Shown in pieces: positions 3,393-23,570 of a stretch of DNA of 62,500 nt (positions within the stretch are counted from its first letter, which is position 1; each line of letters starts with the position of its first letter). The notes beneath the pieces are model-generated. The model had not been told where the DNA came from, did not search any database, and saw nothing but the letters and a program-made list of their open reading frames with translations. The DNA is from Rhizobium gallicum bv. gallicum R602sp (lineage in GTDB: Bacteria > Pseudomonadota > Alphaproteobacteria > Rhizobiales > Rhizobiaceae): positions 1 to 62,500 of the forward strand of contig NZ_CP006877.1 in the NCBI RefSeq assembly GCF_000816845.1, in the 5' to 3' direction. The position numbers and the translations under genes were made by a program.

Positions 3393-4098
3393 AATCATTT
3401 TCGATACGGAAACCACCGGTCTCGACAGCCGCATGGATCGCATCATCGAAATCGGCGGCGTCGAGCTTTTGAACCATTTCCCGACCGGCCGCACGATCCA
3501 TATCTATATCAATCCGGGAGATCAGAAAGTTCATCCCGATGCGCTCGCCGTTCACGGTATTACCGACGAGTTTTTGAAGGACAAGAAGCCTTTCTCCGCA
3601 GTGGTCGAAGAGATCATCGAGTTCTTCGGTGACGCAAGGTGGATCGCGCACAATGCGACCTTCGATATGGGTTTTGTGAATGCCGAACTCGCTCGCCTTG
3701 GCATACCGCCGGTCCTGCCGGAGAGGGTCGTTGATACGCTTTCTCTCGCTCGGCGCAAACATCCGATGGGACCGAATTCGCTCGATGCCCTCTGCCGCCG
3801 CTACGGTATAGACAACTCACACCGCACAAAACACGGTGCACTTCTCGACTCCGAACTGCTTGCCGAGGTCTATATAGAGATGATCGGCGGGCGTCAGACC
3901 GCTCTCGGTTTGAGCGTTTCGGCAACAAGCGGGGCAGGCGACGCCGAGATTGTTCTGGATGAGGCCGTTGACATAGGTTTGGAGCGGCCCAGGCCCCTCG
4001 CGCCGCGCCTTAGCGAAGCGGAAGCTCAGGCTCACGATGCGTTGATTGCCGCACTCGGCACCAAAGGCATCTGGGCCAGATACGATCGTCCAAATTAA
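3385..4098 (+). CDS. dnaQ: DNA polymerase III subunit epsilon (3'-5' proofreading exonuclease)
   Basis: Supplies the proofreading activity of the replicative polymerase. The three exonuclease motifs are visible: Exo I FDTETTGLDSRMDRIIEIGG at the N-terminus, Exo II HNATFDMGFVNAEL, and Exo III HRTKHGALLDSELLAEVY (DEDDh type). The length of 237 residues and the C-terminal tail are consistent with DnaQ rather than a free-standing exonuclease. It is the last gene of the maf-aroE-coaE-dnaQ run and converges with secB across a shared terminator. Confidence 0.95.
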   Translation: MREIIFDTETTGLDSRMDRIIEIGGVELLNHFPTGRTIHIYINPGDQKVHPDALAVHGITDEFLKDKKPFSAVVEEIIEFFGDARWIAHNATFDMGFVNAELARLGIPPVLPERVVDTLSLARRKHPMGPNSLDALCRRYGIDNSHRTKHGALLDSELLAEVYIEMIGGRQTALGLSVSATSGAGDAEIVLDEAVDIGLERPRPLAPRLSEAEAQAHDALIAALGTKGIWARYDRPN

Positions 4099-5343: not shown

Positions 5344-6045
5344 ATGAGTTCAAACGACTTCATCACTTTGTTTTTCCTTGTGGCGGCGGTGCTGATTTTT
5401 TTCCAGCTCCGCAGTGTTCTGGGACGCCGCACGGGAAATGAGAAGCCGCCGCGCGATCTCTTTACGCCGCGCGATGCCGCCGGTCCTGAGCATTCCGATG
5501 CCGGCAAGGTCGTGACGCTTCCGCGCCGCGATACGCCTGCAGAGGAAGAAGGCCGCTTTGCAGTGGTCGACGCTTTTGCGGCCCCCGGTACGCCGCTCAA
5601 TGAGCCCCTGCGTGCGCTCAGTAAAGCCGACCCAGCCTTCGCACCTAAGGAATTTTTGAACGGCGCGAAGATGGCTTACGAAATGATCGTCATGGCTTAT
5701 GCCGACGGTGACAGAAAGACGTTGAAGAATCTTTTGTCCCGCGAGGTCTATGACGGTTTTGATGCGGCCATCGCAGATCGCGAGGCCAAGGGCGAGAAAG
5801 TGAAATCCACCTTTGTCGGCATCGATAAGGCGGACATCACACAGGTGGAAGTCAAAGGCAGCGAGGCACAGATTACGATCCGTATCGCCAGCCAGCTGAT
5901 CTCCGCGACCTACGACAAAGCTGACAAGCTGATAGAAGGCGATGTCGAGAACGTTGCCGAAGTCAACGATATCTGGACCTTTGCCCGCGATACGCGATCG
6001 CGCGATCCCAATTGGAAACTCGTGGCGACCGAATCGGAAACATGA
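5344..6045 (+). CDS. timA: Tim44-like domain protein (TimA type)
   Basis: A 233-residue protein with one N-terminal membrane segment (FITLFFLVAAVLIFFQLRSVL, residues about 6-26), a polar linker, and a C-terminal Tim44 domain from about residue 85. The domain starts with the FLNGAKMAYEMIVMAYADGD helix and continues through the fold related to the mitochondrial import motor subunit Tim44. Alphaproteobacterial homologues (TimA) are membrane-bound and of uncertain function. It overlaps mltA by 4 nt. The ATG at 5344 begins right before the membrane segment; no strong ribosome-binding site is seen. Confidence 0.85.
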   Translation: MSSNDFITLFFLVAAVLIFFQLRSVLGRRTGNEKPPRDLFTPRDAAGPEHSDAGKVVTLPRRDTPAEEEGRFAVVDAFAAPGTPLNEPLRALSKADPAFAPKEFLNGAKMAYEMIVMAYADGDRKTLKNLLSREVYDGFDAAIADREAKGEKVKSTFVGIDKADITQVEVKGSEAQITIRIASQLISATYDKADKLIEGDVENVAEVNDIWTFARDTRSRDPNWKLVATESET

Positions 6046-7160
6046 GTGACGATAAAGCGGGCTTCGTTCTGCAAGCTGCCGGTTTCGATGAACTCAAGGG
6101 CTGGAAGGATGATGATCCCTCCAGCCTTTTTGAAGTCATGGAAGCGTGCCGCAGCCAAGTTACCGGCACGAAACCCTACCGCACCGGATCGCTCGGCCTG
6201 AGCACCGACGATCTTTTGCCTCTGCTTAAGGCAGCCCGAAATGCGAAACCCGCATCTGCTTCGGAAGCCCGATCCTTCTTTGAGCAGAACTGTCGGCCGT
6301 TCTTTATCAAAAAACTGGACGGTGGCCGGGGTTTCGTTACCGCTTTTTACGAACCGGAAATCGCCGTTTCCGACAAGCTCGATTCTACTTATCGCTTCCC
6401 GTTCTACCGGCGACCCGATGATCTGATCGAGCTCGACAATAGCAACCGCCCCGTAGGCCTCGATTCATCCTATGCCTTTGGTCGCCTCCAGGATGGAGAG
6501 ATAAGCGCCTATCCCGACCGGCAAGCGATCGACCAAGGCTTCCTCGACGGTCGAGGCCTTGAAATCGCCTGGGCGAAATCCAAGGTCGATGTCTTCTTCG
6601 TGCATGTGCAGGGCGCGGCGCGATTGCGCTACCCGGATGGACGGAAGGCGCGTATCACATATACGGCAAAGGCCGGGCATCCTTTCTCCGCCATCGGCAA
6701 GCTGTTGGTCGACCGCGGCGAAATCGACCGTGCGAACATTTCCATGCAGTCGATTCGCGCCTGGCTCGCAGCGCATCCAGAGCAGGTCGATGATGTTCTC
6801 TGGCACAATCGGTCCTATATTTTCTTCCGCGAGGCGCCGGTTGCCGCGTCTAAAGCTGGACCAGTTGCTGCAGCGAAAGTGCCGTTGGTCGCCGGACGGT
6901 CGCTTGCCGTCGACCGCCTGATACATACCTTCGGTTTTCCCTTCTTCATCCGTTCCGAAAGCCTGACCCATCTTGATAAGGGTAGGCCGTTCCAGCGTTT
7001 GATGCTTGCCTTGGACACTGGCTCCGCGATCGTCGGTCCTGCGCGTGGCGATATTTTTACGGGTTCCGGCGATGAAGCGGGCGAATTGGCGGGTACGGTG
7101 CGCAACGACGCGGACTTTGCCATCCTCATTCCGAACGCTGCGGCTGGAAGGTTCGGCTGA
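6042..7160 (+). CDS. mltA: MltA-type lytic murein transglycosylase (3D domain)
   Basis: MltA enzymes cleave the MurNAc-GlcNAc bond of peptidoglycan, forming 1,6-anhydro ends. The central MltA domain contains GFVTAFYEPE near residue 95, and the C-terminal 3D domain carries LALDTGSAIVGPARGDIF and TGSGDEAGELAG with its conserved aspartates. Length from the ATG at 6042 is 372 residues; this start overlaps the timA stop (ATGA) and is preferred over an ATG 30 nt upstream. Odd point: neither start gives a signal peptide or lipobox, although the substrate is periplasmic. The gene is coupled to timA and smr. Confidence 0.88.
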   Translation: MSDDKAGFVLQAAGFDELKGWKDDDPSSLFEVMEACRSQVTGTKPYRTGSLGLSTDDLLPLLKAARNAKPASASEARSFFEQNCRPFFIKKLDGGRGFVTAFYEPEIAVSDKLDSTYRFPFYRRPDDLIELDNSNRPVGLDSSYAFGRLQDGEISAYPDRQAIDQGFLDGRGLEIAWAKSKVDVFFVHVQGAARLRYPDGRKARITYTAKAGHPFSAIGKLLVDRGEIDRANISMQSIRAWLAAHPEQVDDVLWHNRSYIFFREAPVAASKAGPVAAAKVPLVAGRSLAVDRLIHTFGFPFFIRSESLTHLDKGRPFQRLMLALDTGSAIVGPARGDIFTGSGDEAGELAGTVRNDADFAILIPNAAAGRFG

Positions 7161-7723
7161 TGACGCGAGACCGCAAGCTCAGCACGGACGAGCGAATTCT
7201 ATGGGGCAAGGTTGCGCGCAGTACGCGGCCGCTCGCCGGCAAGAAGGGCGAGTTGACTGAACTCGATGCCTTTCTTGTGGAAACCGAAGCCGAGGTCGCG
7301 AATGCCGTACAGAAATCATCTGCCGACACGGAAATGCAAGCTGCAGCGCTGCCCGCGGCAGCGAAGCAGCCTTCCGGCACCCACCATCCACTGGAGCGGC
7401 CCGTCAAACGCAAGATCGCCAAAGGCCGGCTGGCACTAGAGGCGCGTATCGATCTCCACGGCCTCGTGCAAAGCCAAGCCCACGTCATGCTTCTCGATTT
7501 CCTCATCCGCGCGCACGAGCGCGGCATGCGGCATGTGCTGGTGATCACCGGCAAGGGCAGTTCGATGGGGAGCGAAGGTGCGTTGAAACGGGCTGTACCG
7601 CTCTGGTTTTCGAAGCCGGAATTCCGCTATCTGATCTCGTCTTACGAAGCGGCTGCGCACCACCACGGCGGCGAGGGCGCGCTTTATATCCGGCTCTCCC
7701 GGCGGCAGGGGGACAGGTCATGA
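7160..7723 (+). CDS. Smr/MutS2 domain protein
   Basis: A 187-residue protein with a low-complexity N-terminal half and a C-terminal Smr domain from about residue 90. Domain hallmarks are IDLHGLVQSQA, VLVITGKGS and the closing GGEGALYIRLSR. Stand-alone Smr domains are predicted nucleic-acid endonucleases; the cellular target of this one is unknown. Its ATG shares one base with the mltA stop, and its own end overlaps the XRE regulator by 4 nt, so it sits in the middle of a coupled set. Confidence 0.88.
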   Translation: MTRDRKLSTDERILWGKVARSTRPLAGKKGELTELDAFLVETEAEVANAVQKSSADTEMQAAALPAAAKQPSGTHHPLERPVKRKIAKGRLALEARIDLHGLVQSQAHVMLLDFLIRAHERGMRHVLVITGKGSSMGSEGALKRAVPLWFSKPEFRYLISSYEAAAHHHGGEGALYIRLSRRQGDRS

Positions 7724-8170: not shown

Positions 8171-10666
<2,496 letters not shown>

Positions 10667-19082: not shown

Positions 19083-20435
19083 ATGATACCCAGGGGCCAG
19101 ACCGCAGTGAGTGAAGCAGCGCAGGAGATCGACAAACTCATGGGATTGCATCCCAAGGGTTTCGATCTTTCGCTCGATCGCATCACCCGCCTTCTCGAAG
19201 TACTCGGCAATCCGCAGAACCGGCTGCCGCGGGTCATTCATGTCGCCGGAACAAATGGCAAGGGTTCGGTTACAGCCTTTTGCCGCGCATTGCTGGAAGC
19301 CGGTGGCTACGGCGTCCATGTCCATACCTCGCCACATCTGGTCAACTGGCATGAACGCTACCGGATCGGTCTTAAGGGCGGCCGGGGTAAGTTTGTCGAC
19401 GATTCGGTTTTTGCAGAAGCGCTTCGGCGCGTTGCTGAAGCGAATGCCGGCCAGAAAATCACGGTCTTTGAAATCTTGACGGCGGTGACTTTTCTTCTCT
19501 TTTCCGAGCACCCGGCCGATGCGGCAATCATCGAGGTGGGTCTCGGCGGACGGTTTGATGCGACAAACGTCATCTCCGATCCGGCCGTTTCGGTTATCAT
19601 GCCGATCTCGCTCGATCATCAGCCCTATCTCGGCGACCGCGTCGAACTGATCGCGGCCGAAAAGGCCGGCATCATGAAGGCCGGGCACGCCGTGGTGATC
19701 GGTCATCAGGAATATGATGCAGTCCTGGATGTCTTGATGTCGACTGCCGAGCGCTTGCATTGCCCGACCGCTGTCTTCGGCCAGGATTACATGGCGCATG
19801 AGGAATATGGCCGCCTCGTCTATCAGGACGAATTCGGTCTCGCCGATCTGCCGTTGCCGCGCCTTCCCGGCCGCCATCAATATGCCAACGCCGCAGCAGC
19901 AATCCGCGCCGTCAAGGCAGCAGGTTTTGTCGTCACCGAAGCGATGATGGAAAAGGCTATGAATTCCGTCGAATGGCCTGGTCGCCTTCAGCGGCTGACC
20001 GAGGGCCGCCTTATCGCACACGCCCCGGCCGGTGCCGAAATCTGGATCGATGGAGGCCATAATCCCGGTGCTGGCGAAGTTATCGCCGAGGCCATGGCGA
20101 ATTTCGAGGAAAAGCAGCCGCGGCCGCTCTACCTCATAACCGGCATGATCAATACCAAGGACCCGGTCGGCTATTTCAGGGCCTTCGTCGGGCTTGCGGA
20201 AAAGGTCTTCTGCGTACCGATCCGTGGCAGCGAGGCGATGATCGATCCGGTGATCCTGTCAAATTCTGCCTATGATGCCGGCCTTGTTGCAGAGCCGAAG
20301 GCCACAGTCGGTGAAGCGTTGGACGCGATCAAGGAGATCCTTGATCCGCAAGCTCCGGCGCCCAGAATCCTGATCGGCGGGTCGCTCTATCTCGTCGGCG
20401 ATGTTCTTGCTGACAACGAAACACCCCCGAAATGA
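19083..20435 (+). CDS. folC: Bifunctional folylpolyglutamate synthase / dihydrofolate synthase
   Basis: Adds glutamate to dihydropteroate and then polyglutamate tails to folates. The ATP-binding loop is HVAGTNGKGSVTAFCRALL, with VHTSPHLVNWHERYRI, FEILTAVTFLLF and the Mur-ligase-like IEVGLGGRFDATNV following. It has 450 residues, a normal length, so the gene is intact. Its last 674 nt (19762-20435) occur again, decayed, at 22831-23202, and the strong terminator expected after folC sits behind that second copy. The present 3' end is therefore part of a duplication bracketing the exporter/TetR cassette. Confidence 0.95.
   Translation: MIPRGQTAVSEAAQEIDKLMGLHPKGFDLSLDRITRLLEVLGNPQNRLPRVIHVAGTNGKGSVTAFCRALLEAGGYGVHVHTSPHLVNWHERYRIGLKGGRGKFVDDSVFAEALRRVAEANAGQKITVFEILTAVTFLLFSEHPADAAIIEVGLGGRFDATNVISDPAVSVIMPISLDHQPYLGDRVELIAAEKAGIMKAGHAVVIGHQEYDAVLDVLMSTAERLHCPTAVFGQDYMAHEEYGRLVYQDEFGLADLPLPRLPGRHQYANAAAAIRAVKAAGFVVTEAMMEKAMNSVEWPGRLQRLTEGRLIAHAPAGAEIWIDGGHNPGAGEVIAEAMANFEEKQPRPLYLITGMINTKDPVGYFRAFVGLAEKVFCVPIRGSEAMIDPVILSNSAYDAGLVAEPKATVGEALDAIKEILDPQAPAPRILIGGSLYLVGDVLADNETPPK
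19762..20435 (+). repeat. folC 3' segment duplicated downstream (intact copy)
   Basis: This segment, from within folC to its stop codon, is the intact partner of the decayed copy at 22831-23202. Homology starts at GCCCGACCGCT and ends within a few bases of the stop; sequences beyond the stop differ completely. Confidence 0.88.
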
Positions 20436-20450
20436 AACCGAAATGTGGAA

Positions 20451-20481
20451 GCATTCTGCAGACTCAATTGTCGCAGAATGC
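20451..20481 (+). terminator. Possible weak terminator after intact folC
   Basis: 9-bp inverted repeat GCATTCTGC (20451-20459) / GCAGAATGC (20473-20481) with a 13-nt loop, followed by CTATTCTTG, a poor T run. It may act as a terminator for folC or for the exporter gene converging on it. Confidence 0.45.
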
Positions 20482-20555
20482 CTATTCTTGTGACGACGTA
20501 AACCACGTCGCAAAACTATCGCTTCAATCGGGGATTTTCGCGACACCACGGATCA

Positions 20556-22022
20556 CTATTTCGGCAGGTTTCTTGGCAGCCAGAGCCACGCAATGATTCC
20601 GACGACAAGCATGAGCAACCCTCCGACTCCGACTGCGACATGCAACCCGGTAAGGAAGGCTTCTTTGGCCTGTGCGACGGTCTCAGGGGGAAGGCCTGGC
20701 CGATCCAGGGTCTCGTTGAGCGTGCCCGCTACGCCGGGACCAAGCAGGCGGAAGCTCAGGGCGGCCAGCGATCCGAGCAGAGTGATGCCGAGCGCATTTC
20801 CCAGCTCGTTGCTGGTTTCCGCGATGGATCCGGCCGCGCCGGCCCGTTCGGGCGAAACCGCCGAGACAGCGACCTCGGCCACGAGGCTGAACGACAGTCC
20901 GTAGCCGATGCCGGCGATGAGCGTTGATGCGATGAAGGCCGCGCCACCAACCTCAGTGCTTGTAAGCAGCAGTAAGATGACGCCTGCGCCTATCAGTAGA
21001 TGCGTCGCCACAAGAGCAGTCTTGCGGCCGATCCACTCCACGATGCGAGCGGTGCCTACGCATGTCGCAGTCAGCACGATGGCCCCCGGCAGCGTCAGCA
21101 GCGCCGTGGTGAAGACATCGAAGCCGAGCACCGATTGCAGATAGATCCCGGACAGGTAGCCGGCGACAGACCAGACGACGAGGGATAAAAGTCCGGTCAG
21201 GATCGCGATGGAGAAAACGCGATCTCGAAATAGGCTGAGATCGAGCAGCGGATAGTCGATGCGGGTCTGTCGGCGTAGGAACAGCACGAGGGCAAGAATG
21301 CCGATGATCCCGCCGGCGGACTGCGCCGCCGTAATACCCTCGGCTGCGGCGAACTTGAGCGACCAGGTGAACAGCAGGATGCCGGCGAACGACAGCAGGA
21401 GACTCGGCAGGTCGATCCGACCATAGGTCGTCGAGCGGACCTCGCGAAGCAGGATCGGCGCGACGATGAGGAAGGCGAGCACGACGGGGACATTAATGAG
21501 GAACACGACGCCCCACTTGAACTGCCTGAGCAACATGCCGCCGATAAGGGGACCAATGGCGAAGCCGGCTGCGAATGTCGCGGCGAAGATGCCGATGGCC
21601 CGCGCGCGCAGCCGCGGATCGGGAAACAGGGCGCTGACGATTGCCAGCCCCGACGGCAGCAATGTCGCACCGCCCAGCCCCATGAGCGCCCGTGCGGCGA
21701 TCAGCATCAATGGAGATTGCGAATAGGCCGCGCCGAGCGATCCCGCACCGAATACCACCGCGCCCACCATAATGAGCTTGAGCCGCCCATAGCGGTCACC
21801 GATATTGCCGAAGACGATCAGCAGGGAGCCGACCACGAAGCCGTAGATGTCGAGAATCCAGAGCGCCTGGTCGGCTGTCGGCGTCAGGGCGGACGTGACG
21901 TGCGGCATGGTGAGGTAGAGAATCGAGCCGTCCATTGCGACGAGCAGGACCAGCGGCAGCACGGCCATGAGGCCGAGCCATGCCTTTCTGTTCACGGAGC
22001 TTGGAAGTGCCATATCGGTCAT
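20556..22022 (-). CDS. MFS drug exporter, DHA2 (14-helix) type
   Basis: A 488-residue major facilitator of the DHA2/QacA-SmvA type, a proton-driven multidrug exporter of the inner membrane. The N-terminal helix carries LVLLVAMDGSILYLTMPHV, the loop after helix 2 shows GNIGDRYGRLKLI (motif A), and ARALMGLGGATLLPSGLAI is typical of antiporters. About 14 hydrophobic segments can be counted. The ATG at 22022 has AAGGA about 10 nt upstream; ATG at 22013 is an alternative. It diverges from a TetR gene across a palindromic operator, so drug-inducible repression is likely. It belongs to the inserted segment between folC and trxA. Confidence 0.9.
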   Translation of the reverse strand: MTDMALPSSVNRKAWLGLMAVLPLVLLVAMDGSILYLTMPHVTSALTPTADQALWILDIYGFVVGSLLIVFGNIGDRYGRLKLIMVGAVVFGAGSLGAAYSQSPLMLIAARALMGLGGATLLPSGLAIVSALFPDPRLRARAIGIFAATFAAGFAIGPLIGGMLLRQFKWGVVFLINVPVVLAFLIVAPILLREVRSTTYGRIDLPSLLLSFAGILLFTWSLKFAAAEGITAAQSAGGIIGILALVLFLRRQTRIDYPLLDLSLFRDRVFSIAILTGLLSLVVWSVAGYLSGIYLQSVLGFDVFTTALLTLPGAIVLTATCVGTARIVEWIGRKTALVATHLLIGAGVILLLLTSTEVGGAAFIASTLIAGIGYGLSFSLVAEVAVSAVSPERAGAAGSIAETSNELGNALGITLLGSLAALSFRLLGPGVAGTLNETLDRPGLPPETVAQAKEAFLTGLHVAVGVGGLLMLVVGIIAWLWLPRNLPK

Positions 22023-22113
22023 TGGGTAAATTCCTTCTGCGAACGGCGCGCGCAGGCGTGCCGCTTCGGCCGCTGACGAAAGACCAGCGGATGGTTGCGT
22101 TGGAAGGGTTGTA

Positions 22114-22150
22114 TCTATATACTTTAAGTAAGTTACATTTGGTATATAGA
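22114..22150. promoter_or_regulatory. Palindromic operator between exporter and tetR genes
   Basis: Perfect 9-bp arms TCTATATAC (22114-22122) and GTATATAGA (22142-22150), 19 nt apart, in an AT-rich stretch that must hold both divergent promoters. The right arm ends one base before the tetR ATG. This is the expected place for autorepression by the adjacent TetR protein. Confidence 0.72.
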
Positions 22151-22151
22151 G

Positions 22152-22766
22152 ATGTCAAGCACACCCGATGACACGCAGATCCCGAAGCGCGTCCGTTTGA
22201 GCCGTGACCAGCGGCTATGCCAGCTTCTCGACGTGGCGTGGCGGCTCGCGCGCGAAGAAGGCACCGATGCCCTGACGCTGCCGCGCATGGCGGACGAGGC
22301 CGGCGTTACAAAGCCCGTAATCTACAGCCATTTCGGTACCCGCAACGGCCTGTTGACGGCTCTCTATCAGGACTTCGACGCGCGCCAGACGGCGGTGATC
22401 GACGCCGCGCTCGAAGCCTGCGCGCCGATCTTGGAAAAAACCGCAAGGGTCATCGCTTCGTCCTATGTCGAATGCGTGCTGGCCCAGGGTCGCGAGATTC
22501 CCGGCGTGTTGGCCGGACTTGCGGGCTCCCCCGAACTGGAGGCCGTCAAACGCGACTATCAACTGGCGTTCATCGAGAAATGCCGAAAGGCGTTGGCGCC
22601 GTTCACGGGCCCAAAGGGCATCATGCAGTCAAGCTTCTGGGCGGTGCTCGGGGCGGCCGATTCGTTATCTCATGCCGCTGCGACGGGACAAATCACCATC
22701 GAACAAGCTCAAGACGAACTCTATGAGATCATCGTTGCAATGGTGAGCAGGAGCTTTCACACTTAA
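22152..22766 (+). CDS. TetR family transcriptional regulator
   Basis: A 204-residue repressor: helix-turn-helix in residues about 22-65 (MADEAGVTKPVIYSHFGTRN is the recognition part), then an all-helical ligand-binding domain without informative motifs. The neighbour and the shared operator imply it controls the divergent DHA2 exporter, released by a drug-like ligand. The ATG at 22152 directly abuts the palindrome and has only a weak AGAG before it, so initiation may be inefficient or leaderless. Confidence 0.88.
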   Translation: MSSTPDDTQIPKRVRLSRDQRLCQLLDVAWRLAREEGTDALTLPRMADEAGVTKPVIYSHFGTRNGLLTALYQDFDARQTAVIDAALEACAPILEKTARVIASSYVECVLAQGREIPGVLAGLAGSPELEAVKRDYQLAFIEKCRKALAPFTGPKGIMQSSFWAVLGAADSLSHAAATGQITIEQAQDELYEIIVAMVSRSFHT

Positions 22767-22830
22767 CGGGCGGCAGGCAATCGCAGGACTCAGGCAGTTT
22801 CGCTACGAAGCTACTTCGGCTCATGCAATC

Positions 22831-23202
22831 GCCCGACCGCTCTCTTCGGCCAGGATTACATGGCGCATGAAAAACATGGCCGCCTCGTCTATCAGGACGA
22901 ATTCGGTCTCGCCGATCTGAGTTGCCGCGCCTTCCCGGCCGCCATATACCGACGCCGCAGCAGCAATCCGCGCCGTCAAGCCAGCAGGTTTTGTCGTCAC
23001 CGAAGCGATGATGGAAAGGCTATGAATTCCGTCGATGGCCAGAGCTTCAGCGGGTCGCCTTGTCGCACATGTCCCGGCCGGTGCCGAAATCCGGGTCGAT
23101 GTCGGGCCCGTCGGTGAAGCGCTGGACACGATCGAGGAGGTCCTTGATCCGCAGGCTCCGGTCGGCGATGTTCTTGCTGACAACGAAATACCCCCGAAAT
23201 GA
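22831..23202 (+). pseudogene. folC (remnant): Decayed second copy of the folC 3' end
   Basis: Nearly identical blocks to 19762-20435 but only 372 nt long. It contains single-base deletions (one at the LPLP codons, one in the MEKAM codons) that break the frame, and two larger internal losses removing about 300 nt. One loss is after the codons for AEIWID, the other is before the final VGDVLADNE codons. The stop codon TGA at 23200-23202 is retained and is followed at once by a strong terminator. This arrangement suggests that this copy is the original chromosomal end of folC, now orphaned by insertion of the exporter/TetR cassette. Confidence 0.88.
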
Positions 23203-23230
23203 AAAAAGCCCGGTCAGAGCCGGGCTTTTT
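23203..23230. terminator. Bidirectional terminator of (ancestral) folC and trxA
   Basis: 11-bp inverted repeat AAAAAGCCCGG / CCGGGCTTTTT with a 6-nt loop; T runs on both strands. It ends trxA (stop 20 nt away) and follows immediately on the orphan folC stop. Confidence 0.93.
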
Positions 23231-23249
23231 CTCTCAATATGCAATGAAA

Positions 23250-23570
23250 TCACGCGGCGTTCGAAATCCAGCTCGAAAGAGCGGTCTTCGGAGCAGCGCC
23301 GACCTTGATATCGGCAACTTCACCAGCCTTGAAAATGGCAAGCGTGGGGATCGAGCGGACGCCGAACTGGGCTGCCAGTTCCGGGTTTTCATCGATATTA
23401 AGCTTAGCGACCTTAACCTTGCCTGCGAGTTCGGTTGCAATTTCCTCAAGGCTCGGAGCGATCATCTTGCACGGACCGCACCACTCAGCCCAAAAATCAA
23501 CGACGACGGGTTCTGCAGATTCCAGAACTTCCGACTGGAAGTTGTTGATATCGACTTTCACGGTAGCCAT
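23250..23570 (-). CDS. trxA: Thioredoxin
   Basis: A 106-residue cytosolic thioredoxin that reduces protein disulfides using electrons from thioredoxin reductase. The active site WCGPC spans residues 30-34 in [18 protein letters not shown], and the cis-proline is in SIPTLAIFK. It has a good ribosome-binding site (AAAGGAGC) ahead of the ATG at 23570. It lies 75 nt after addA, at the end of the long leftward run from divL. Confidence 0.97.

What the first reader, a model, noticed from the sequence alone, without database searches (positions are those of the whole stretch)
19762..23202. Exporter/TetR cassette bracketed by an intact and a decayed copy of the folC 3' end
The last 674 nt of folC recur at 22831-23202 as a 372-nt remnant with frame-breaking single-base losses and two larger deletions. 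The strong bidirectional terminator follows the remnant, not the working gene, so the remnant is probably the original folC end. This is the footprint expected from single-crossover (Campbell-type) integration of DNA carrying a folC 3' end plus the exporter and tetR genes: folC stays intact and the displaced end decays. No integrase or insertion sequence is present.
Basis: partly seen in the sequence, partly recalled or inferred. Interest (0 to 1): 0.75.

Follow-up and report, generated by a model that had tools for sequence, protein, structure and literature searches.

The report
Terminator-hunting gene cassette beside folC
A drug-exporter gene and its switch sit behind an essential Rhizobium gene as the cargo of a worn-out mobile element; that element belongs to a scattered family that carries ordinary genes, shows no gene for moving itself, and mostly lands in the hairpins that end transcription.

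Summary
Observation confirmed: folC's last ~680 nt recur as a decayed 372-nt remnant behind an exporter-TetR pair. Of 141 genus genomes with folC and trxA placed on one contig, 138 have 45-389 nt between them; only this genome and two sister species carry the cassette (2.5-2.9 kb), apparently gained once.

No foreign folC donor is visible. "No insertion sequence" misses the key feature: the folC-exporter spacer is the left end of a mobile element, which in the sisters starts inside the folC terminator hairpin. Relatives form a Rhizobiaceae family: ~25-bp inverted ends, palindromic sub-ends, ordinary cargo (acetyltransferases, GST, methyltransferases, hydrolases), no transposase recognised. Of 22 complete copies, 17 show an 8-bp target duplication (>=7/8; control 4%) and 17 sit in a terminator-like hairpin (controls 11-12%).

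Best reading: such an element carrying exporter-tetR entered the folC terminator; one illegitimate exchange joined its right side to folC codon ~225 of an empty copy, duplicating the folC end. Insertion is well supported; the duplication route, the right end and the mobilising enzyme are not.

The parts
19083..20435 (+). folC, intact (folylpolyglutamate/dihydrofolate synthase)
   Evidence: NCBIfam TIGR01499 E 1.9e-97; DNA match in 148 of 148 genus genomes
19757..20435 (+). segment of folC that is duplicated downstream (from about codon 225 to the stop; in siblings the left copy also keeps about 17 nt of the terminator)
20436..20450 (+). inner 15 nt of the element's left terminal inverted repeat (AACCGAAATGTGGAA) directly behind the folC stop; the outer TIR and the terminator 5' arm, present in G137 and G092, are missing here (27 nt)
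   Evidence: comparison with G137/G092; TIR family
20448..20544 (+). left sub-terminal palindromic part ('end A', model positions 103-199) of the element
   Evidence: nhmmer with a model built without the carriers: E 3e-17 here, 1.6e-19 in G137, 1.5e-12 in G092
20556..22022 (-). cargo: MFS drug exporter, closest to DHA2-type models
   Evidence: Pfam MFS_1 2.3e-47; NCBIfam LfrA/QepA/SmvA/DHA2 models matched below their cut-offs; dN/dS 0.14-0.15
22115..22149 (.). operator-like palindrome CTATATAC...GTAA-G-TTAC...GTATATAG in the shared promoter region
   Evidence: alignment of 10 homologous pairs, two of them nearly identical: left half CTATATACTT in 10 of 10, right half GTATATAG in 9 of 10; function inferred
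22152..22766 (+). cargo: TetR-family regulator, divergent from the exporter
   Evidence: Pfam TetR_N 1.2e-12; dN/dS 0.16-0.17
22767..22830 (+). possible relic of the element's right end ('end B'), truncated; weak
   Evidence: best local alignments beat 500 of 500 shuffles in G137 and G000, 497 of 500 in G092; not found by the carrier-free model at E<=5
22828..23202 (+). decayed duplicate of the folC 3' end (remnant)
23203..23233 (.). intact folC terminator hairpin, now between tetR and trxA
   Evidence: fold -19.2 (+) and -18.6 (-) kcal/mol
23250..23570 (-). trxA, right neighbour of folC in the empty state
   Evidence: Pfam Thioredoxin 5.5e-35

Best explanation
The exporter-tetR pair is the cargo of a decayed element with terminal inverted repeats and no recognised transposase. 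The element belongs to a Rhizobiaceae family that mostly inserts into the hairpins of intrinsic terminators with 8-bp target duplications. In a common ancestor of three sampled sister species it landed in the loop of the folC terminator (left junction ...GCCCGGTCGAAG|CCCAGCCTCTAACC). Then, or at the same time, the right side of the element was joined by one illegitimate exchange to about codon 225 of an empty folC copy (a sister chromosome or imported DNA). This left an intact folC, the element, a second folC 3' end and the intact terminator before trxA. The spare end is decaying in each species, while exporter and TetR remain under purifying selection. Shown: insertion, shared origin, left end, target, cargo conservation. 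Inferred: that the right junction arose by one illegitimate exchange, that a trans-acting transposase moved the element, and that TetR represses the exporter through the conserved palindrome.
For: Short folC-trxA gap in 138 of 141 placeable genus genomes, cassette in 3. Same right junction in all three carriers, same left junction in the two that keep it. Cassette divergence close to flank divergence (cassette 96.2/93.8/94.4%; addA 96.8/94.5/95.3%). Left end: carrier-free end-A model hits all three carriers at E 1.6e-19 to 1.5e-12 and none of the five empty relatives given. TIR pattern at <=2 mismatches: 39 sites in 25 of 148 genus genomes, reversed-letter control 0; 13 of 394 family genomes, control 0. 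22 complete elements: 8-bp duplication >=7/8, best over small shifts, in 17 of 22 versus 4.3% of 462 mismatched flank pairs treated alike; terminator-like hairpin at the rebuilt site in 17 of 22 versus 697 of 6385 random positions and 105 of 856 positions 0-80 nt past gene ends. For the G089 copy, of the 20 best-matching loci read, 18 show the uninterrupted hairpin and 2 (G089 itself and G023) the element. None of the 22 elements has a duplicated gene end within 1.5 kb, only three 20-24-nt matches, so the folC duplication looks private to this locus.
Against: No mobilising enzyme was found. The right end in the window clade is only weakly recognisable and is missed by the carrier-free model, so the element's right boundary and target duplication cannot be shown at folC. 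The outer TIR itself is a weak single hit (G137 E 4e-4, G092 0.087) and is gone from the window. G100 is empty although it nests inside the carrier clade (flank tree bootstrap 99-100), so a loss, an allele replacement or an old polymorphism must be assumed. 5 of 22 elements are not in a recognised terminator and 5 of 22 have only 6/8 matching duplications. The duplication route is inferred from structure alone.
Confidence: 0.7

Rival explanations
1. Campbell-type integration: a circular molecule carrying a folC 3' end, the exporter and tetR recombined once with chromosomal folC, leaving an intact chimeric folC and a displaced 3' end.
For: The direct-repeat layout is what a single crossover would leave. 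A plasmid-like replicon carrying a folC 3' end plus trxA exists in the genus (G163 C3, next to a transposase-like ORF). The exporter is common on plasmids (68 records).
Against: No sign that the working 3' end came from outside the clade. No plasmid backbone genes between folC and trxA. The element end inside the terminator explains the left junction without a circle. Four plasmid-borne or second-replicon copies of the exporter checked have no folC beside them (L069, L070 by sequence; L088, L090 by annotation).
Confidence: 0.2
2. The folC 3' end was first duplicated in tandem by ordinary unequal exchange, and the element later landed between the copies.
For: The left junction is an ordinary element-in-terminator junction. 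Tandem duplications are common (general knowledge).
Against: The right side lacks a TIR, a target duplication and the 3' half of the first terminator, and joins folC codon ~225 directly in all three carriers, so a coincidental deletion to that point is needed. None of the 138 genomes without the cassette has room for a tandem copy.
Confidence: 0.12
3. Aberrant transposition: the two element ends were joined to two different sites (terminator and codon 225) on sister chromosomes in one step, giving a duplication.
For: Explains duplication and insertion in one event; the left end is joined precisely.
Against: The right TIR is absent at the junction in all three carriers. None of the 22 complete elements shows such a duplication.
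Confidence: 0.12

Closest known systems
Mobile insertion cassettes (mic/MIC, e.g. MIC231, mic-qnrD)
   Same: Cargo gene(s) between inverted repeats, target duplication, no transposase gene nearby (definition in passages of PMC3913671).
   Different: 8-bp duplication (mic-qnrD 2 bp); long palindromic sub-ends; marked preference for terminator-like hairpins; many unrelated cargos; no parent insertion sequence identified. TIR sequences were not compared with ISfinder.
TIMEs (Tn3-derived miniature elements mobilising adjacent genes)
   Same: Non-autonomous, inverted ends, carry diverse modules (abstract of PMC4133298).
   Different: TIMEs have 38-bp Tn3-type ends, 5-6-bp duplications and AT-rich targets (abstract); here ~25-bp ends, 8-bp duplications and GC-rich hairpins. 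End sequences were not compared.
Group IIC introns (recalled: target terminators)
   Same: Terminator hairpins as targets (recalled).
   Different: Target duplications are present here; no reverse transcriptase among the 20 cargo proteins scanned; no Rfam match at gathering score in six loci searched.
Rhizobial intergenic repeats (RIME, Sm-repeats, AB and C palindromes)
   Same: Palindromic intergenic repeats in rhizobia (passages of PMC2573895).
   Different: Those are described as intergenic repeats of unknown function; here the repeats are ends of cargo-bearing elements. Sequence identity with RIME could not be tested.
smvR-smvA type TetR/exporter pair
   Same: Divergent TetR regulator and exporter (arrangement of smvR-smvA recalled); weak matches to PRK14995/PRK14996.
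   Different: Both scores are far below the curated cut-offs (235 of 701 and 26 of 144 bits), so not a member.

Membership tests
Mobile insertion cassette (MIC), as a class | Two terminal inverted repeats enclosing cargo | tested here: met
   22 elements with both ends recognised; TIR match >=20 of 25 on both sides in 12 of 22, 13-19 on one side in the other 10. In the window copy only part of the left end is left
Mobile insertion cassette (MIC), as a class | No transposase gene inside | tested here: met
   20 cargo ORFs from 18 loci, covering 14 of the 22 complete elements, scanned with Pfam: no transposase; 15 of 22 elements are <=1.3 kb. The remaining ORFs, including two further ones in L222, were judged by eye only
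Mobile insertion cassette (MIC), as a class | Target-site duplication | tested here: met
   17 of 22 at >=7/8 bp, control 4.3% of 462; at folC itself not testable, right side lost
Mobile insertion cassette (MIC), as a class | Mobilised in trans by an insertion sequence with the same ends | tested here: inconclusive
   By eye no transposase ORF between or beside the TIRs examined; three fetched regions were not analysed; a wider search for the parent was not run
Campbell-type integrant | Direct repeat of host gene flanking the insert | tested here: met
Campbell-type integrant | One repeat copy derives from another lineage | tested here: not met
   folC 3' part shows no consistent excess of synonymous divergence over the 5' part; 3' tree weakly resolved, no foreign placement. 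A donor from within the clade would not be seen
Integron gene cassette | attC site and integrase-mediated insertion | not tested
   Not searched; the 8-bp duplications and paired TIRs fit transposition instead
Group IIC intron | Group II intron RNA / reverse transcriptase | tested here: not met
   No Rfam match at gathering score in six loci; no RT among 20 scanned cargo proteins
SmvA/LfrA/QepA exporter equivalogs | Score above curated cut-off | tested here: not met
   293 of 825 (LfrA), 262 of 1075 (QepA), 235 of 701 (SmvA) bits

The most novel reading that the evidence does not exclude
Rhizobiaceae hold an unrecognised gene-cassette system: single genes or short operons bounded by palindromic GTCGCAAA/TTTGCGAC modules and common terminal repeats, moved by an unidentified enzyme that uses terminator hairpins as targets, so that cargo is parked behind operons without breaking them. 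The same inner modules lie between successive single genes on at least one Ti plasmid, so they may be the joints of cassette arrays analogous to integrons but built on another recombination chemistry.
Probability: 0.3. Interest if true: 0.85.

Novelty: new variant of a known kind. Interest (0 to 1): 0.68.

Why it matters
If right, a low-copy mobile family supplies soil and symbiotic bacteria with ordinary accessory genes while sparing host genes, by landing in terminators, where an insertion leaves the upstream gene whole. It gives a sequence rule for finding such cargo and poses a clear question: which enzyme recognises a terminator hairpin as a target? It also shows how a two-copy gene end that looks like plasmid integration can come from a transposon relic plus one unequal exchange.

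Tried and rejected
Foreign folC donor: not supported by dS and trees. Some comparisons are uneven in both directions (G137-G100 dS 0.062 in the 5' part and 0.133 in the 3' part; G000-G100 0.158 and 0.105), which I read as noise or local exchange. Repeat-mediated pop-out to explain empty G100: possible but not shown; G100 keeps ancestral states to the very end of the repeat, so an empty allele from a relative or an old polymorphism is as likely. Independent gains in G092 and G000/G137: rejected, shared junctions and spacer sequences. Source of the exporter pair: nearest relatives outside the clade are Paracoccus kondratievae (90% protein), Shinella granuli and Brucella grignonensis (89%); the first two are about 85% identical in DNA. 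In the 32 loci compared, homology ends within about 30 bases of the two genes or earlier, so no donor is named. Right end B: suggestive by shuffles, not confirmed. Autonomous partner: not found. Literature: searches over the open PMC library listed no description of this family; most subscription papers and ISfinder are not covered. Rfam: no match.

Dropped rows: L282 was left out of the 22 elements as the same locus as L281. Seven genomes (G095, G010, G106, G168, G021, G131, G003) were left out of the interval count because trxA was not in the printed list or lay on another contig (its tables were typed from the printed lists). Loci L316-L318 were fetched but not analysed.
Full report
OBSERVATION. 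The layout is real: folC 19083-20435, exporter 20556-22022 on the other strand, tetR 22152-22766, a decayed copy of the folC 3' end 22828-23202, a strong hairpin terminator 23203-23233, and trxA 23250-23570. The window is the first 62.5 kb of a 4.13-Mb contig in a 7.3-Mb genome of four contigs.

RELATIVES. All 148 held genomes of the genus have a folC match. trxA could be placed on the same contig in 141. There, 138 have 45-389 nt between the two genes and three have 2.5-2.9 kb: G000 (this genome), G137 and G092. The exporter protein occurs at E<=1e-100 in 5 of 148 genomes: the three carriers, a 645-kb second replicon of G065 that equals an R. bangladeshense plasmid in length and position of the match, and a partial copy in G007. 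Among plasmid records it is found in 68, 63 of them Sinorhizobium.

HISTORY. The tree of accD, trxA and addA is ((G000,G137),(G092,G100)),G075, with bootstrap 99-100 on these groupings. Carriers differ in the cassette about as much as in the flanks (cassette 96.2, 93.8, 94.4%; addA 96.8, 94.5, 95.3%), which fits vertical inheritance after one gain. G100 is nested but empty; a loss, allele replacement or old polymorphism has to be assumed. Exporter and TetR have dN/dS of 0.14-0.17, similar to addA at 0.13-0.15, so they are conserved as proteins. The remnants of G000 and G137 share a deletion of about 246 nt and six states not seen in any working copy, one of them in a poorly aligned tail; each has further damage of its own. 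The G092 remnant starts at the same breakpoint but has lost most of its length. Synonymous divergence of the working folC 3' part against G100 and G075 is above that of the 5' part in some pairs and below it in others, without a consistent excess. The 3' tree is weakly resolved (G075 joins G000/G137 with 54% support), and the tree including the remnants is unresolved. So nothing points to a donor from outside the clade, but the trees are not strong.

THE HIDDEN ELEMENT. In G137 and G092 the working folC stop is followed by the 5' arm of the folC terminator and then by CCCAGCCTCTAACCGAAATGTGGAA or close to it. The window lacks 27 nt here and keeps only the inner 15 nt of that repeat. Searching the G137 spacer in the genus gave matches at E<=0.001 in 33 of 148 genomes, 30 of them not carriers, at 70-96% identity over parts of the query; in G088 and G140 they form inverted pairs about 660 and 780 bp apart. 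These pairs enclose one gene: an acetyltransferase in G140, a small unknown protein in G088. The 23-nt repeat, at up to two mismatches, occurs at 39 places in 25 of 148 genus genomes, none for the reversed-letter control. It occurs in 13 of 394 Rhizobiaceae genomes, by my count 11 of 386 outside the genus. In an order-wide sample it occurs in 1 of 397 genomes, a Rhizobium, and so by my count in 0 of 376 outside the family.

FAMILY ANATOMY. Profile searches with the two ends (A about 200 nt, B about 120 nt, both with GTCGCAAA/TTTGCGAC palindromes) gave 23 pairs, 22 after removing one duplicate locus, 0.66-3.3 kb long. The TIR matches the consensus at 20 or more of 25 positions on both sides in 12 of 22; in the other 10 one side is weaker (13-19). 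Pfam names for 20 cargo proteins, from 14 of these 22 elements and 4 incomplete ones: acetyltransferases, GST, PCMT-type methyltransferases, glyoxalase-like, C-N hydrolase, AAA/kinase-like, alpha/beta hydrolase, esterase, transglutaminase-like, LysE, PhyH, lipocalin-like, Na/Ca exchanger; two gave no match; none is a transposase. The duplicated 8 bp, best over small shifts, match at 7 or 8 positions in 17 of 22 elements against 4.3% of 462 mismatched flank pairs treated alike. The rebuilt site is terminator-like in 17 of 22 against 697 of 6385 random positions and 105 of 856 positions 0-80 nt past gene ends. The elements are not all independent, so I give no weight to exact p-values. For the copy in G089, the left flank matches in 148 of 148 genomes; of the 20 best loci read, G089 included, 18 show the uninterrupted GGCCGGCCTTGCGCCGGC hairpin and 2 (G089, G023) the element. 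A model of end A built without the carriers finds the spacer in all three carriers (E 3e-17 in the window) and in none of five empty relatives. The right end in the carriers is uncertain: the best local alignments beat all or nearly all of 500 shuffles, but the carrier-free model misses it.

MECHANISM. The simplest account has two steps. First, an element with the exporter-tetR cargo entered the loop of the folC terminator, as its relatives do elsewhere. Second, one illegitimate exchange joined its right side to about codon 225 of an empty folC copy, giving the extra folC end and bringing the native terminator behind tetR. None of the 22 complete elements has a duplicated gene end within 1.5 kb; only three 20-24-nt matches were seen. 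So the second step looks private to this locus. A circle with a folC end would give the same map and is kept as a rival; a second-replicon folC 3' end with trxA exists in G163. The exporter and TetR share a promoter region with a palindrome, CTATATAC...GTATATAG, whose left half is conserved in 10 of 10 and right half in 9 of 10 aligned pairs. This suggests TetR control; it is inference.

KNOWN RELATIVES. By the definition used for mobile insertion cassettes (passages of PMC3913671) the family qualifies except that no partner insertion sequence was found. TIMEs (abstract of PMC4133298) are alike in kind but differ in repeat length, duplication length and target. I found no description of this family in the listings of nine searches of the open PMC library, which leaves out most subscription journals. 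That IS231-type elements or group IIC introns favour symmetric or terminator targets is recalled, not tested.

VERDICT. Observation confirmed, interpretation partly supported; the larger finding is a terminator-favouring family of gene cassettes without a recognised transposase in Rhizobiaceae, of which the folC cassette is a worn member.

Noticed in passing
L079:9428-10426 (G163, contig C3): A replicon with nodC/nodI/nodJ-like ORFs (by eye) carries 630 nt of the folC 3' end, its terminator and a trxA copy next to a transposase-like ORF (8672-9376; IS6-like by eye).
   Followed up: partly
L290 (pTi-SAKURA) 3924-4001, 6000-6084, 6314-6371, 7329-7410, 9065-9142, 9715-9793: Inner palindromic modules of the element ends lie between successive single genes (GST, VOC, hydrolase, transporter) on a Ti plasmid, like joints of a cassette array.
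   Followed up: partly
L286:10001-10083 and L287:10001-10083: The same module lies upstream of another exporter-TetR pair on Citrobacter freundii and Pseudomonas shirazica plasmids.
   Followed up: no
L284:3999-5648 and L295:5001: Two Rhizobium leguminosarum-group plasmids carry the TIR at what looks like the same locus (amidohydrolase to rraA) with different cargo, suggesting cargo exchange in place.
   Followed up: no
L293:5001-5032 (Roseibium aggregatum plasmid): A weak TIR-like match (E 3) lies between a tyrosine recombinase gene and an IS3 transposase gene; probably chance.
   Followed up: no
G016:C1:1801306-1802654: folC is split into two overlapping reading pieces (residues 1-49 and 43-450) in this genome, a frameshift or an assembly error.
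   Followed up: no
L277 and L278: In two other Rhizobiaceae genera a TIR copy lies next to a phnM-phnN-like gene pair (recognised by eye), a possible shared insertion spot.
   Followed up: no
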